Origin: Nitrospirota bacterium
GTDB taxonomy: Bacteria; Nitrospirota; Nitrospiria; Nitrospirales; Nitrospiraceae
Length of the DNA: 64,000 bases
Direction: 5' to 3'
NCBI GenBank assembly: GCA_016219645.1
Contig: JACRLR010000034.1
Location: 1 to 64,000, forward strand
Shown here: positions 13,535 through 56,071 of the stretch, piece by piece
How positions within the stretch are numbered: the first letter of the stretch is position 1
How the letters are laid out: each line of letters opens with the position of its first letter
Notes under the pieces: model-generated
Database searches by the model: none
What the model saw: only the letters and a program-made list of their open reading frames with translations
What the model was told of the DNA's origin: nothing
Made by a program: the position numbers and the translations under genes

Positions 13535-13614
13535 GAATGTTGAATGATGAATGGTAAATTTTGAATGAGAATAACCGACACAATTCAACATTTCACATTT
13601 ACCATTCAACATTT
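13535..13614. repeat. ATTCAACATT-family palindrome, copy 1
   Basis: Arms AATGTTGAATGATGAATGG and CCATTCAACATT (with a partial internal repeat) form an AT-rich hairpin between SRP RNA and dnaX. A second copy is at 56838-56923. Confidence 0.65.
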
Positions 13615-13630
13615 CTCTCAAGAGAAGAGC

Positions 13631-13732
13631 GGGGCCAGGTGATCCTGCGGCACACAGAACTGACCGCTTACCGTTGCTTCCTTCCGGACCTGGCGGGGTT
13701 CACAGGGTTCTGTCGCACAGGGCCCGGCCCCT
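13631..13732 (-). ncRNA. ffs: Signal recognition particle RNA, small bacterial type
   Basis: The minus strand contains the conserved SRP RNA tip: GCCAGGTCCGGAAGGAAGCA followed by ACGGTAAG, bounded by pairing flanks GGGGCCGGGCCC...GGGCCAGGT. The length of about 100 nt fits the small (4.5S-like) class without an Alu domain. It sits between tRNA-Ser and dnaX on the same strand. The ends are approximate. Confidence 0.93.
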
Positions 13733-13743
13733 AATCCTCACCT

Positions 13744-13836
13744 AGTTCTGAGTTTTGAGTGCTGAGTTATGAATGCGAAGATGTGTTCCGTTCCCTTATC
13801 CTCTAACTCAGAACTGATAACTCAGAACTCAGCACT
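13744..13836. repeat. CTGAG-family palindrome, copy 1
   Basis: The left arm repeats GAGTT-CTGAGT-type units and the right arm repeats ACTCAGAACTCAG units around a 30-40 bp centre. It lies just upstream of SRP RNA. A second copy is at 54728-54792. Confidence 0.6.
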
Positions 13837-13844
13837 TCTTTGAG

Positions 13845-13985
13845 TGGCGGAGAGGGTGGGCATTCGAAGTCGCGCGCGCTGAAACAGCGCTCGCTCCTAC
13901 AGAGGGGGCCAGCCCCCTCGTACACTCCCCACGCGGGAGACACATCCCCCGCGATCCCCCTGTTCGAATCCCACTCTCGGGGCTT
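13845..13985. other. tRNA-Ser 3'-end remnant and palindromic sequence
   Basis: Bases 13845-13860 repeat exactly the 16 bases at 14045-14060, the 3' end of the neighbouring tRNA-Ser gene, followed by ATTCGAA displaced by one base. Near 13965-13985 another piece, GTTCGAATCCCAC, reads as a T-arm on the opposite strand. No cloverleaf can be folded. It may be a broken duplicate of the tRNA gene or a relic of integration at its 3' end. Confidence 0.5.
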
Positions 13986-14041: not shown

Positions 14042-14134
<93 letters not shown>

Positions 14135-20573: not shown

Positions 20574-20710
20574 CTAGTGATCTCCGAGCCGGGTTTAGTC
20601 CAGCGTGGAGGACGATAAGTCTCTGACAGAGGATTGTCAATCAGCAGAGGGGATGGGCAGCCTGGCCGCTCCCTTCTCTTCCTTCCAAGCTTGCCCGCTT
20701 TCCTTCTCTT

Positions 20711-20805
20711 GAAGGGGCACCCATGTTGGTCTACGTGAGGCCGTCGCACGAGGCCCTTCTGAGGGCGCGCGTTCCGGGAGCACAGGACCAACATGGGTGC
20801 CCTTC
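20711..20805. repeat. Long inverted repeat beyond the HEAT-protein gene
   Basis: GAAGGGGCACCCATGTTGG (from 20711) and its reverse complement CCAACATGGGTGCCCTTC (to 20805) form near-perfect 20 bp arms with a single-base difference around a 54 bp centre. It may act as a terminator or processing hairpin for the minus-strand HEAT gene ending at 20816. Confidence 0.7.
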
Positions 20806-20815
20806 CATCCCCCCT

Positions 20816-21895
20816 TCAGCTGAACTGATCCCAGGTATCGCACTGTTTGATCGCCCAGAACACTGCTTCTTTGAGTTTCTTCAACTGCACATTCTCCGGA
20901 TCGCGCAGGGCTTGGAGTTTCCTATCGAGATCTTGAAGTGGCTGGATTGATCGTTTATCCGGAATCTTACCCAACGCCCAGGCCACCTCTGTGAGCACGG
21001 ACCAGTCGGTCTTCGGATCCTGTAGTTTGACCAGCAGCGGCGGCACGACCGAGGCATCCCCGTGCAGTCCACCGAGCTGGCCCAACCCCTTGGCGGCTGC
21101 GGCCTGCACCTCGAGTTCCGGTGATGTATTCATGATCTCAACCAAGAGCGGAATGCCCTCTTTGCCAAGGTTGCTCATCGCGCCAATCGCTTGCTTCGCC
21201 AGGCCGCGATCTTTGAGCACCTCCTTCAATTTCGGCATGGCCTCGTCAGCTTGCATCTCGCCCAAGAGAGAAATAATTTTAATTCGCCTAGCCTGGGGCG
21301 TATCGGATCGATCGAGCAGCTTCAGAAGTCGTTCCGGCTGACCCCATTCGGCCGCCAGCAACAAGGGGAAGTCGTATACCTCAAGAATCTCCCTCAATTT
21401 TCCCATGGCATAGACCCCTGGATTTCCCGCGTTAGCCGATTGTGCAGCCTGTCCCGCATCTTCAAACTCGGTTCTGACCTCTTTCTGCCAGTGGACCTTC
21501 ATGTCTCCTAGTCGATAAGTCATCTGACAGGCGGGACCTTTCCATAGCCGAGATGGGGCATCGGGCAAATCGGCATCGCCTCCTGCGGACGTGGTGCCTT
21601 CCCATGTTTTTCGCTCTTCGCATTTCACCTTGAGCACAGCGTCGTGAGGTTTACCAGCTTCTCGTATCACTGTGAATCCCAACTCACCCATCCGGCGGGC
21701 GACAAGCTCAGTAAGGGGCGTCGCATCAAGAACTCCCTGGTCTGCCAGCGCAATCGCCTCAATACGCAGGGTATGAATCTTCTCCAGCAGCGCTTTCTGC
21801 CCCGTCGTGAAATAGTCACGATAGGCCCACGAAGAAGGGGCGTGAAGTGCCCCAAAACTAAAAGCCAGAACTAAGAGCAGCAGCGCCATGCGCAT
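20816..21895 (-). CDS. Secreted HEAT-repeat protein
   Basis: This 359-residue protein has a signal peptide (MRMALLLLVLAFSFGALHAPSSWA) and an N-terminal domain of about 110 residues with a FTVI-REAGKPHDAVLKVKCEE segment. HEAT repeats of about 30-35 residues occupy 175-345 (KIISLLGEMQADEAMPKLKEVL, LAKQAIGAMSNLGKEGIPLLVEI, and so on). HEAT arrays make curved protein-binding surfaces; a periplasmic role is inferred. The start at 21895 is supported by AAGGAGGT seven bases upstream. Confidence 0.75.
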   Translation of the reverse strand: MRMALLLLVLAFSFGALHAPSSWAYRDYFTTGQKALLEKIHTLRIEAIALADQGVLDATPLTELVARRMGELGFTVIREAGKPHDAVLKVKCEERKTWEGTTSAGGDADLPDAPSRLWKGPACQMTYRLGDMKVHWQKEVRTEFEDAGQAAQSANAGNPGVYAMGKLREILEVYDFPLLLAAEWGQPERLLKLLDRSDTPQARRIKIISLLGEMQADEAMPKLKEVLKDRGLAKQAIGAMSNLGKEGIPLLVEIMNTSPELEVQAAAAKGLGQLGGLHGDASVVPPLLVKLQDPKTDWSVLTEVAWALGKIPDKRSIQPLQDLDRKLQALRDPENVQLKKLKEAVFWAIKQCDTWDQFS

Positions 21896-34087: not shown

Positions 34088-34538
34088 CCTCGTCTCCAAA
34101 GTGGCGCATGATGCCATAAGAAGGAAGGGGAGGGCAAGGAGGCGCGGGGATGGAGCCTGATGATCTTCAATCCCCACGCAACGCGCGGCCTGAGAAAGAT
34201 GCGAGGGAGGAGGCAGACCGTTCTTCTTGCTCGCAGAGCCCCCACGATAAAGCTGTGGTCGCTCGATGCGCGCAGTGAAGAACAATCTACCTCCTCCCTC
34301 TGGGAAGTTGGGAACCAGAAGGGCCTTGCCTTGGCTAGTGGCAGGTCTCGTGAAGTCGATTACGAAGTAATCGGAGGATAGGGCGGGTGATAATATCTGC
34401 CAGTGGGTAGGGGGTGAGAAAGACGCGCACAGTCAGGGAGCTGACTCCTTGCCTTCCAAAGAATGGATAATATGAACAGACGACGGAAAGGGGCTGTTGA
34501 TTGACAGGCTTTTCAATCGTCCCGTAGACTCTCCCCCT
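34088..34538. other. Intergenic region with GCGCAACGCGC-family repeat
   Basis: About 450 bp with no convincing gene. It contains a GCGCAACGCGC-family palindrome (34144-34300). The rest has no visible feature apart from a possible alternative TTG start for rimO at 34497. Confidence 0.5.
34144..34300. repeat. GCGCAACGCGC-family palindrome, copy 1
   Basis: Left side GATGGAGCCTGATGATCTTC, then ACGCAACGCGCGG. The right side has GATGCGCGCAGTGAAGAAC and CTACCTCCTCCCTC. It resembles copies at 35933-36090 and 55138-55345. Confidence 0.55.
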
Positions 34539-35918: not shown

Positions 35919-36334
35919 CAGAATGCTGAAAAAGAGGGGATGGAGGCTGATGATCTTCTGTGCTCGCGCAACGCGCGGGCGCGGACTCCCCTCGTTGGAC
36001 GCGCGCACTCGAGGATCGACCAGACTCCCCTTGAAAAAACGATGAATCGGGAAGACGCGCGCAGTTGGGATCATCCCACCCACCCTTTATAAAGTAATAG
36101 CTCGCCGTAGCCTTGCCTGCGTAAAGGCGTGTCTCGGACTTCGGCAAGCTCAGTCGAGCCGCACGCCAGGGTTGGGCGGGTAAAGCTAGTCGTCTTTTTG
36201 AGCATCCTGCGGGCTTGGGGTTTCCTGCCTGCTGCAGTAATGTTTCAATAACTTGCTAGAGCCATTTCCCGCCGGTATCCTTGTTTATCTGCTGCACGTG
36301 CACGAACCGCTTTCATTGTAAAGGTAGGCCCACG
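35919..36334. other. Intergenic region with composite palindrome
   Basis: No gene is supported. The region is bounded by halves of the 120 bp hairpin family: CAGAATGCTGAAAAAG at about 35920 and CTTTTTGAGCATCCTGC at about 36194-36210. Between them sits GCGCAACGCGC-family copy 2. Confidence 0.6.
35933..36090. repeat. GCGCAACGCGC-family palindrome, copy 2
   Basis: Begins GGGGATGGAGGCTGATGATC, with CTCGCGCAACGCGCGGGCG. The other arm contains GACGCGCGCAGTTGGGATC and CCCACCCACCC. It lies inside outer arms of the 120 bp hairpin family. Confidence 0.6.
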
Positions 36335-53280: not shown

Positions 53281-54042
53281 ATGAGAATCAGGAAGAAAAC
53301 CCCCAAGCCTTCAGCCAAACGGCCCCCCCTCTATTTCGTGGGCTATCGGGGAACTGTGCCGGCGCTGGAAGAACTCAAGGCCTGGTACGATCTTGAATAC
53401 GGCGGTCCGTTGACTCTGCGGGCCGACGAACAGGCAACAGAATCCTGGTCCGCGGTCCATGGGCCCTGGACCGCTCATATCGTCATCCCGCTCCCTCCAA
53501 CCCATATCGAAGGGCTGAAGGAAAAACTTGCCTGGGAACATGAACATGTTGGGGCCGTTGCGCCATCCCTCATGCCTCCGCGCGATATGCCGGACACCAT
53601 TTTATTTGCGGCCCGGCTCGCGCGGGGGCTTACACTCCTTACGCAAGGGACGGCCTATGACATCACCACCGATCAGTACGTCAATCCATCGGATTGGCAG
53701 GATCGCCCCCTCACCCTCTTCAACGTGAGCGATCACATTCCGGTCCTGCAGGCTGAGGATGAACAAGGCCATCGGAACTGGTGCTATACGCTCGGCCTGA
53801 GCAAGTTCGGCGTGGATGAACTCGAAATGTTTCTTGCCCCTGGCCTCCCGGACCAGCCTATCCGTGATCTCCTCAGAGAAACGGCGGATGAATTGACCAG
53901 GATCGGACAGTCGCCGAAAGTCGGAAGTCATATTCGTATCGCCTCTTCGGGTCAGAGCATTGCGATCGCCAACCACCGCACCGCCGCGCCGGCCGGCCGT
54001 ATGCTGAGCTTTCGGGAAATTCGACCGTTACCGGCTGGTTGA
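53281..54042 (+). CDS. Hypothetical protein
   Basis: This 253-residue soluble protein is not recognised. It begins basic (MRIRKKTPKPSAKRPP). The rest has mixed alpha/beta character, with EELKAWYDLEYGGPLTLRAD, PWTAHIVIPLPPTHIEGLKE, LTLLTQGTAYDITTDQYVNP and GLSKFGVDELEMFL. The gene begins 68 bp after typA. Its end merges into TGGTT-family copy F. No function is suggested. Confidence 0.5.
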   Translation: MRIRKKTPKPSAKRPPLYFVGYRGTVPALEELKAWYDLEYGGPLTLRADEQATESWSAVHGPWTAHIVIPLPPTHIEGLKEKLAWEHEHVGAVAPSLMPPRDMPDTILFAARLARGLTLLTQGTAYDITTDQYVNPSDWQDRPLTLFNVSDHIPVLQAEDEQGHRNWCYTLGLSKFGVDELEMFLAPGLPDQPIRDLLRETADELTRIGQSPKVGSHIRIASSGQSIAIANHRTAAPAGRMLSFREIRPLPAG

Positions 54043-54124
54043 TCTGGTTTGTTTTGTTTATCTGGTTGATTTGGTTCATCTAATTAGTTTCGTTCAACCA
54101 AAAAACCAAACAAACCAGAGCAAC
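54034..54124. repeat. TGGTT-family palindrome, copy F
   Basis: The left arm overlaps the last codons of the 53281-54042 gene (GGTTGATCTGGTTTGTTTTG). The centre is TTAGTTTCGTTCAACCA, the reverse complement of the conserved TTGAACGAAAC centre, and the right arm is ACCAAACAAACCAGAG. Reverse orientation relative to copies C-E. Confidence 0.75.
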
Positions 54125-54727: not shown

Positions 54728-54792
54728 TAGTGCTGAGGACTGAGTGCTGAGACCGATCTCTTGGCTCACTCAGCACTCAGAACTCAGCACTT
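54728..54792. repeat. CTGAG-family palindrome, copy 2
   Basis: TAGTGCTGAGGACTGAGTGC and ACTCAGCACTCAGAACTCAG, then CACTTAA, form arms between the peroxiredoxin and thioredoxin genes. Related to 13744-13836. Confidence 0.65.
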
Positions 54793-54805: not shown

Positions 54806-55138
54806 ATGTCTGGCACCGTCGAAGACGTCAGAGACGAAAACTACAAGGAATTTACCGAGGCACCCGCCTCGATCGTCGCCTATGGGTTAGCGACCTGTGA
54901 GCCCTGCAAGACCTACGACCCGATCCTGGAACAGATCGCCGTCACATTTCCAGACGTGAAGGTCGGCAAGGCCAAGATGCACGTGCCGGGCCGTTGCCGT
55001 GAGATCAAGAAGAGCCACACTTTCGAGACCTACCCCACCACGCACTTCTTTTCCAATGGCAAGCTGCTCCTGACCCGTGAAGGAGTGGTGGAGCCGGACG
55101 AACTCGCCGCCCTGATTTCAGATCACCTGCTGAAATAG
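54806..55138 (+). CDS. Thioredoxin-fold protein with CEPC active site
   Basis: This 110-residue protein has a thioredoxin fold with the active site in YGLATCEPCKTYDPIL (C-E-P-C instead of C-G-P-C) and the cis-proline in TYPTTHFFSNGK. It is a probable disulfide reductase or electron donor in the cytoplasm, possibly to the upstream peroxiredoxin. The start at 54806 avoids the preceding repeat; an ATG at 54761 is within it. Confidence 0.82.
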   Translation: MSGTVEDVRDENYKEFTEAPASIVAYGLATCEPCKTYDPILEQIAVTFPDVKVGKAKMHVPGRCREIKKSHTFETYPTTHFFSNGKLLLTREGVVEPDELAALISDHLLK

Positions 55139-55345
55139 AAAAGAAGGGGATGGAGCCTGATGATCTTCTGTGCTCGCGCAACGCGCTCGGGCTTGTCTGT
55201 CTGGTTGGCCGGTCTTTCTGGTCTATCTGGTTCTTCCGGATGAATTTCCAGTGTGATTAACAAGACAAACCAGATAGACGAGATAGACCAGATGAACCAG
55301 CATTCGCTGGATGCGCGCAGTGGAAGATCAATCAGCCCCCATCCC
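55138..55345. repeat. GCGCAACGCGC-family palindrome with nested TGGTT-family element
   Basis: Outer arms GAAGGGGATGGAGCCTGATG...CTCGCGCAACGCGC (55142-55188) and GATGCGCGCAGTGGAAGATC...CCCCATCCC (about 55310-55350) enclose TGGTT-family copy G (55193-55306). It follows the thioredoxin gene. Confidence 0.65.
55193..55306. repeat. TGGTT-family palindrome, copy G
   Basis: Left arm TGTCTGTCTGGTTGGCCGGT and TCTATCTGGTTC, right arm ACAAACCAGATAGACGAGAT and AGACCAGATGAACCAG. The centre differs from other copies. It lies between the two halves of a GCGCAACGCGC-family palindrome. Confidence 0.65.
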
Positions 55346-55463
55346 TGAAGAGATAACGAGCAAGCTTGGAGGGCAATTTTCAGGTTACTTGCACATGCGA
55401 GTGAATTTTCCGGAGGGACGGCGATCCCCCCGAGCCCGTGAGGGTCACTCCGGAGGCAGGAAA

Positions 55464-55940
55464 CTATTTCGTCAATCGCGTCTTCGAGCAGTGTTCGTGC
55501 TGAATCAGCCAGGTGGAGCCCTCTTTGCGGAGGAGGGTGGTGCATTGCCCGGCGTCCTGTGCTTCGAGTTCGCCTTTCCTGATCGCTTGAAACACATAGT
55601 CGTAGGTCGCCCAAGCAGTGGGGCCTGGGATCCGAACTTGTAGGTTTGACACGGAGCTGATAAAGCGCAGGCTGCTTCCGTTCTTGAGCTCAGCTTCATA
55701 GTCCGACAGCCACTTCTCGATGGACTCCCTCGTCTCCGTCTCGCCATCCTGAATACCGACATAGTCCTTGGTATAGAGTTTCAACACGGCATGCTTATCT
55801 CTGGATTCGGAAAAGGTTGAGGCTGCCATGGCGGCTTCCTTGATGGTCTTCTGGATCGCGTCCCCTTCCTCGACAGCCCAGGCCACCGGCGTCCATAGGA
55901 AGCACGACATCAGCAGCGCAGAGATCAGACCTGTATGCAT
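55464..55940 (-). CDS. Secreted NTF2-like (DUF4440/SnoaL-type) protein
   Basis: This 158-residue protein has a signal peptide (MHTGLISALLMSCFLWTPVAWA) and an NTF2-fold region with KHAVLKLYTKDYVGIQDGETETRE, WLSDYEAELK, ATYDYVFQA and WLIQHEHCSK. Such domains bind small molecules or act as scaffolds; the ligand is unknown. It is probably periplasmic. It faces a TGGTT-family element on its 5' side. Confidence 0.72.
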   Translation of the reverse strand: MHTGLISALLMSCFLWTPVAWAVEEGDAIQKTIKEAAMAASTFSESRDKHAVLKLYTKDYVGIQDGETETRESIEKWLSDYEAELKNGSSLRFISSVSNLQVRIPGPTAWATYDYVFQAIRKGELEAQDAGQCTTLLRKEGSTWLIQHEHCSKTRLTK

Positions 55941-55983
55941 AGAGCGATGGGGACTGCCACCCTTCTGCTTGGTGGCTGTCCCC

Positions 55984-56071
55984 GTTCCATCTGTTTATTT
56001 GGTTTGTTGTGTTTGTGTAGTTCTGAGAACCAAAGAAACCAAACAAACCGGTTAACCAGAGAAACCAAACG
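55984..56071. repeat. TGGTT-family palindrome, copy H
   Basis: Left arm TCTGTTTATTTGGTTTGTTG and right arm AACCAAACAAACCGGTTAAC, with centre TAGTTCTGAGAACC. It lies between the NTF2-like gene and the PTPS-like gene. Confidence 0.65.

What the first reader, a model, noticed from the sequence alone, without database searches (positions are those of the whole stretch)
55138..55345. One palindromic family inserted inside another
A TGGTT-family element (55193-55306) separates the two halves of a GCGCAACGCGC-family palindrome whose outer arms still pair. This is sequence evidence that the TGGTT family has moved as a unit, or expanded in situ, after the first was in place.
Basis: seen in the sequence. 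Interest (0 to 1): 0.6.

Follow-up and report, generated by a model that had tools for sequence, protein, structure and literature searches.

The report
DNA hairpins nested inside other hairpins
In Nitrospira bacteria, small repeated DNA hairpins between genes swap or swallow one another's tips, so the hairpin reported here is one of many copies of a mix-and-match family and not a single local accident; the pattern is striking, but the enzyme behind it is unknown.

Summary
Window 55146-55346 folds as one hairpin (z -4.7). Outer arms ("A" family) and a 16+16-nt core enclose a 117-nt TGGTT-type hairpin at 55187-55303. The genome is a Nitrospira MAG. Ordinary A copies carry a 15-nt tip in that slot, so the TGGTT unit replaces the tip; no target duplication was found.

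It is not a one-off. The composite is itself dispersed across the genus, and the same TGGTT unit sits in the same slot inside several different outer arm families. The window's unit is 116/117 identical to one at another locus of a related species, where the arms differ at 10 of 60 positions. At that locus, orthologs carry only the outer palindrome, other arms, or nothing. Other orthologous loci show interrupted and uninterrupted hosts in the same way (hosts F and K).

So "moved as a unit after the outer palindrome" is supported at family level. At this exact site no relative with the bare A palindrome was found. "Expanded in situ" explains at most 9-nt length changes. The likeliest mechanism is apex breakage and exchange through the shared core (inferred). 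A Y1/RAYT transposase is not detectable in 13 of 32 genomes, including copy-rich, near-complete ones. It works like REP-in-palindrome insertions and yeast mitochondrial GC-cluster shuffling.

The parts
55146..55170 (+). left outer arm, A family (GGGGATGGAGCCTGATGATCTTCTG); starts 8 nt after the stop codon of the thioredoxin-like gene
   Evidence: pairs with 55320-55346 in the fold; A-family copies throughout the genome
55171..55186 (+). left core arm TGCTCGCGCAACGCGC, shared by all arm families
   Evidence: 20 copies in a 464-kb sample, 0.33 expected; near-constant among different arm families
55187..55303 (+). TGGTT-type unit in the apex slot; period-9 hairpin with its own loop, replacing a 15-nt tip
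   Evidence: aligned copies with constant junctions; ordinary tips in A copies; inner stem 55211-55232/55268-55289
55304..55319 (+). right core arm TCGCTGGATGCGCGCA (usual form TCGTTGGACGCGCGCA)
   Evidence: 15 copies in the 464-kb sample, 0.33 expected; the TCGCTGG variant is shared only with the near-identical G026 copy L158 and with L159 among the copies inspected
55320..55346 (+). right outer arm, A family (GTGGAAGATCAATCAGCCCCCATCCCT)
   Evidence: pairs with the left arm; compensatory changes between arm families
55347..55373 (+). conserved unpaired 3' tail of the A element (GAAGAGATAACGAGCAAGCTTGGAGGG)
   Evidence: conserved past the hairpin in most A copies
54806..55138 (+). thioredoxin-like gene (110 aa) used as the anchor for orthologous loci
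   Evidence: found in 83 of 100 related genomes

Best explanation
The element is a composite member of a Nitrospira superfamily of intergenic hairpins built from exchangeable parts: outer arms of several families, a near-constant core, and an apex slot. The slot holds a short tip, a TGGTT-type hairpin, a GGCACG-type hairpin or a whole further element. SHOWN by comparison: apices are replaced by other hairpins inside standing outer palindromes; inner unit and arms are inherited largely independently; composites are dispersed as units too. INFERRED: the extruded hairpin is broken at its apex (fork stalling, or SbcCD-type cleavage of hairpins) and loses the tip. The break is repaired by copying from another hairpin of the same superfamily, guided by the shared core or by microhomology. 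That accounts for apex loss, core-bounded exchange, absence of target duplication and mismatched arms. How whole elements reach new sites after stop codons is not explained by this step; a machinery acting in trans is needed and was not identified.
For: Same TGGTT unit with constant junctions in many outer contexts. Window versus L158: 1/117 differences inside, 10/60 in the arms, p = 9e-5. No correlation of inner and outer divergence among 16 A/A copies (Mantel r 0.01, p 0.48). Arm-family labels on the inner tree change as often as when shuffled (13 against 12.4; 10 against 10.7). 9 of 28 copies with both arms classified have arms of different families. Orthologous pairs: G004 outer palindrome with ordinary tip, G026 same palindrome with TGGTT; G023 uninterrupted F hairpin, G000 same hairpin with an A element in its apex; G010 and G007 uninterrupted K hairpin, G005 with an H element and G026 with a GGCGCG hairpin in the apex. 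In each pair the tip is lost and no duplication is seen. Hairpin pairing is preserved while sequence changes: 17 of 30 pairs with compensatory change among 7 arm families.
Against: No enzyme or intermediate was seen. Recurrent 3' junctions near CGCGCAG could equally mean a site-specific process. The inner tree is poorly resolved (31 of 43 inner forks open) and the arms are short, so independence is not proved for every copy. Most genomes are MAGs, in which repeats can be misassembled; the G026 copy at the thioredoxin locus runs into a gap of Ns.
Confidence: 0.5

Rival explanations
1. A dedicated transposase inserts hairpin elements into the apex of other hairpins, as a targeted MITE-like transposition; composites then spread as units.
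For: Different modules (B, C, F, G) sit after the same A apex sequence GGCCTCAGAAGG and resume near CGCGCAG; whole composites are dispersed. At window ~20.7 kb a possible 5-bp GCTGA direct repeat flanks the element compared with element-free relatives.
Against: No target duplication in the nested cases; host tip nucleotides are lost; the 5' junction differs between hosts (GCAGAAC|, ACGATAAAA|, GGCCTCAGAAGG|). No candidate enzyme found.
Confidence: 0.25
2. They are REP/REPIN elements moved by a RAYT (Y1 transposase).
For: Intergenic imperfect palindromes in high copy; one Y1_Tnp gene in G000, with palindromic repeats near it.
Against: 13 of 32 genomes of the genus have no Y1_Tnp match at E <= 0.001, among them 99%-complete G001, G008 and G017, which hold 35-43 matches to the composite. 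No conserved GTAG or CGTC tag at the element ends in the copies inspected. The repeats next to the G000 Y1 gene are TGGTT-type and another palindrome, not the core element.
Confidence: 0.08
3. The TGGTT part grew in situ by slippage inside the loop of an A palindrome.
For: Copies differ by 9-nt steps in the TGGTT arms (for example L014, L163, L044, L208).
Against: All composites share one TGGTT loop and the same junctions, inside unrelated outer arms; the ordinary 15-nt tip has no TGGTT seed; free-standing TGGTT hairpins listed in the sample have other loops.
Confidence: 0.04
4. Assembly artefact: chimeric joins between repeats in metagenome-assembled genomes.
For: Most genomes are MAGs; the G026 thioredoxin-locus copy breaks off in Ns inside the TGGTT unit.
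Against: The window copy lies well inside a 137-kb contig; composites differ from each other by 8-20%, so long identical overlaps are rare; nesting recurs in more than 20 independently assembled genomes and at orthologous sites with matching flanks.
Confidence: 0.05
5. Selection for 3'-end hairpins (termination or mRNA stability) keeps any strong hairpin after stop codons, and shuffling is neutral background.
For: The element starts 8 nt after a stop codon; pairing is kept by compensatory change; relatives carry different hairpins at the same sites.
Against: Many orthologous sites have no element; placement by gene orientation does not differ clearly from ordinary intergenic regions; no T-run follows the hairpin. 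It does not explain the exchange and is compatible with the best explanation.
Confidence: 0.08

Closest known systems
REP dimers inserted within longer palindromes (Anabaena variabilis GTAG-15, Thermomicrobium roseum GTAG-23, Halothiobacillus neapolitanus CGTC-1), PMC3733652
   Same: one palindromic repeat family lies inside another palindrome; intergenic, high copy
   Different: there, target palindromes without REP were not found in A. variabilis or H. neapolitanus; here uninterrupted hosts are common, also at orthologous sites, and the host tip is replaced; no GTAG/CGTC tag seen here
GC clusters (GC42) of yeast mitochondrial DNA, PMC4478555
   Same: small palindromes that spread, merge, shuffle and pass between species; stand-alone and merged forms at the same homologous site
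   Different: 42-nt elements with a putative AG target duplication in mitochondria; here larger, core-based, nested at the apex, bacterial
REPINs with RAYTs (Pseudomonas fluorescens), PMC3116915
   Same: hairpin as the replicative unit, intergenic
   Different: two inverted REPs and a RAYT per family; neither found for this element
LIMP of Lobosphaera incisa mitochondria, PMC4524435
   Same: hairpins made of AACCA/TGGTT repeats, some lying inside another repeat, sites of recombination
   Different: pentanucleotide units with an invariant 7-nt loop in an alga's mitochondrion; here period-9 units with varied loops; likely convergent
IS elements that use REP sequences as targets, PMC1525189
   Same: palindromic repeats serve as insertion targets
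   Different: the insert there is a full IS; here a non-coding hairpin

Membership tests
REP/REPIN | GTAG or CGTC tetranucleotide tag at one end of the palindrome | tested here: not met
   no conserved GTAG or CGTC at the ends of the A copies inspected; inspection only, other arm families not checked one by one
REP/REPIN | associated RAYT (Y1_Tnp) flanked by the same element | tested here: not met
   one Y1_Tnp in G000 without a core element beside it; Y1_Tnp not detected in 13 of 32 genomes, copy-rich ones included
REP/REPIN | small intergenic palindrome in high copy | tested here: met
   core motifs 20 and 15 times in 464 kb; 18 of 19 clusters fall between called genes; the element is longer than the 20-40 bp of a REP
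MITE | terminal inverted repeats | tested here: met
   outer arms pair, with compensatory changes among families
MITE | target-site duplication | tested here: inconclusive
   none at nested junctions; a possible GCTGA repeat at one outermost site, window ~20.7 kb
MITE | a transposase that recognises the ends | not tested
   only Y1_Tnp was searched for
Intrinsic terminator | G+C-rich hairpin followed by a run of T | tested here: not met
   the hairpin is followed by GAAGAGATAACGAGC
LIMP | AACCA/TGGTT pentanucleotide arms around an invariant 7-nt loop | tested here: not met
   nine-base spacing and varied loops
Known structured RNA (Rfam 15) | match at gathering score | tested here: not met
   only tRNAs and small SRP RNA in the window

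The most novel reading that the evidence does not exclude
Nitrospira carry a hairpin-in-hairpin system in which the apex of an extruded palindrome is the preferred landing or repair site for other palindromes, by a process that needs no RAYT and leaves no target duplication, giving stacks several levels deep.
Probability: 0.35. Interest if true: 0.7.

Novelty: new variant of a known kind. Interest (0 to 1): 0.52.

Why it matters
How small non-coding palindromes spread in bacteria without their own enzyme is an old open question. Here one genus offers many orthologous sites where the uninterrupted hairpin, the hairpin with another hairpin in its tip, and the empty site can be compared directly. 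That makes apex breakage-and-copy testable against transposition. It also warns that such arrays are recombination hubs and assembly breakpoints in Nitrospira genomes, and that their translated period-9 repeats can be listed as false ORFs.

Tried and rejected
RAYT mobilisation was tested by Y1_Tnp searches in the own genome and the genus and not supported. In-situ expansion was rejected as the origin. A target duplication at the TGGTT junctions was looked for and not found; an apparent TCG on both sides is not kept in other copies. Bare A outer palindrome at the thioredoxin locus itself was not found in relatives. A flank search for composite L160 gave mostly repeat matches and was dropped. 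Placement by gene orientation gave no clear bias, with crude gene calling. Rfam gave nothing for the element. Literature searches found no description of these Nitrospira repeats in the held library, which lacks most subscription journals.

Full report
Observation. The sequence at 55146-55346 forms one hairpin with outer arms, core arms and an inner TGGTT-type hairpin. It beats all 200 dinucleotide shuffles (z -4.68).

Where it is. The genome is a Nitrospira MAG of 3.65 Mb (G000). The element begins 8 nt after the stop codon of a thioredoxin-like gene.

What the outer palindrome is. A search of the own genome finds many copies whose left and right halves are usually 15-16 nt apart. Read in full, these copies have the form: arm A, core TGCTCGCGCAACGCGC, tip GGCCTCAGAAGGCCC or GGTCGCGGACTCCCC, core TCGTTGGACGCGCGCA, arm A', tail. 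Several other arm families share the core (B, C, D, F, G, H, I and more). Across seven of them the arms keep pairing: 17 of 30 pairs show compensatory change. Core motifs occur 20 and 15 times in a 464-kb sample, with 0.33 expected for each. An A element without insert matches in 51 of 60 genomes sampled from the family.

What sits in the apex. Besides the short tips, the slot can hold a TGGTT-type hairpin, a GGCACG-type hairpin, or a whole further element with its tail. For elements nested in A the left junction is typically after GGCCTCAGAAGG, and the host sequence usually resumes near CGCGCAG with the intervening tip lost. For the TGGTT unit the junctions are constant and the 15-nt tip is exactly replaced.

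The composite is not a local accident. The 251-bp composite query matches in all 32 genomes of the genus, many matches spanning arms and TGGTT unit at non-orthologous places. In aligned copies the same TGGTT unit, with the same loop, lies inside A, B, C, D and other arms, sometimes with left and right arms of different families. Free-standing TGGTT hairpins are abundant in the genome sample, but those listed have other loops. This points to one capture of a TGGTT hairpin by the core, followed by spread and exchange.

Inner unit and arms are largely unlinked. The window unit and the unit at G026:C5:48084 (L158) differ at 1 of 117 positions, their arms at 10 of 60 (p = 9e-5). Among 16 copies with A arms on both sides, inner and outer divergence do not correlate (Mantel r 0.01, p 0.48). 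Arm labels on the inner tree change 13 times (left) and 10 times (right), against shuffled means of 12.4 and 10.7. The inner tree is weakly resolved, so this is supportive and not conclusive. Left and right arms do match each other more often than by chance (19 of 28 against 14.4, p 0.014).

Orthologous loci. At the thioredoxin locus, G025 has a core palindrome with B-like arms and an ordinary tip; G026 has a B-like left arm and then 75 bases identical to the window's TGGTT unit before a gap, although the gene is only 86.7% identical; G007, G027 and G018 have other variants; G030, G004, G019 and others have none. At the locus of L158, G026 has the composite; G004, G006, G027, G009, G021 and G008 have A arms with an ordinary tip; G023 has A arms with the GGCACG hairpin; G000 (window about 20.7 kb) has H arms inside a further outer stem; G019 and another G027 copy have C arms; G024 has B arms; G005, G031, G018, G007 and others have none. 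The alignment of G004 and G026 shows the tip replaced within otherwise matching arms and flank. At a third locus G023 has an uninterrupted F hairpin and G000 the same hairpin with an A element in its apex; most other relatives lack it. At a fourth, G010 and G007 have an uninterrupted hairpin, G005 carries an H element in its apex and G026 a GGCGCG hairpin.

Mechanism. Shown: tip replacement inside standing palindromes, independent assortment of tip and arms, dispersal of composites. Inferred: apex breakage of the extruded hairpin and repair by copying another hairpin through the shared core. Not explained: how whole elements reach new intergenic sites. A RAYT is unlikely to be required, because Y1_Tnp is not detected in 13 of 32 genomes, including copy-rich and 99%-complete G001, G008 and G017.

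Known relatives. REP dimers inside palindromes (PMC3733652) and the merger and shuffling of yeast mitochondrial GC clusters (PMC4478555) are the nearest published cases. LIMPs (PMC4524435) resemble the TGGTT hairpins by composition only. No paper on these Nitrospira repeats was found in the held library. Verdict: a new variant of a known kind, with an unusually clean comparative record.

Caveats. Most genomes are MAGs; arm families were assigned by short local alignments; gene calls in the placement test were crude; the RAYT test depends on MAG completeness.

Noticed in passing
window 20640-20825, minus strand: An H-family element nested in a further outer stem, after a gene end; compared with element-free relatives a 5-base GCTGA occurs on both sides, a possible target duplication of the outermost element.
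   Followed up: partly
window 34146-34299 and 35928-36080: Two more mosaics: an A left half with an F-like element nested after its tip, and an A left arm followed by a B right arm and then another right half.
   Followed up: partly
L156 1915-2100 (G000:C20, next to the only Y1_Tnp gene): A TGGTT-type hairpin seems to act as host: between its arms lies another palindromic family (AGCAGGCTGTTGACAAAGTCCGCC...GAACAGCCTGCG).
   Followed up: no
window 54729-54791 and 13744-13836: Another intergenic palindrome family built of AGTGCTGAG / CTCAGCACT repeats.
   Followed up: no
window 13536-13613 and 13744-13829 around the small SRP RNA at 13630-13729: The SRP RNA gene is flanked on both sides by palindromes of two different families (AATGTTGAAT type and AGTTCTGAGT type).
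   Followed up: no
window 13962-13978 against the tRNA at 14048-14134: A 17-nt inverted match to the T-arm/3' end of the neighbouring tRNA gene, perhaps a tRNA fragment left by integration.
   Followed up: no
G020 (1.8 Mb, 99% complete, same genus): A small genome almost free of these elements (2 and 4 matches in two searches), a natural contrast for finding the machinery.
   Followed up: no
window 53873-54079 and 55795-56046, minus strand ORFs: Period-9 TGGTT hairpins create mechanical ORFs with peptides such as MNQINQINKTNQINQ; risk of false gene calls.
   Followed up: no
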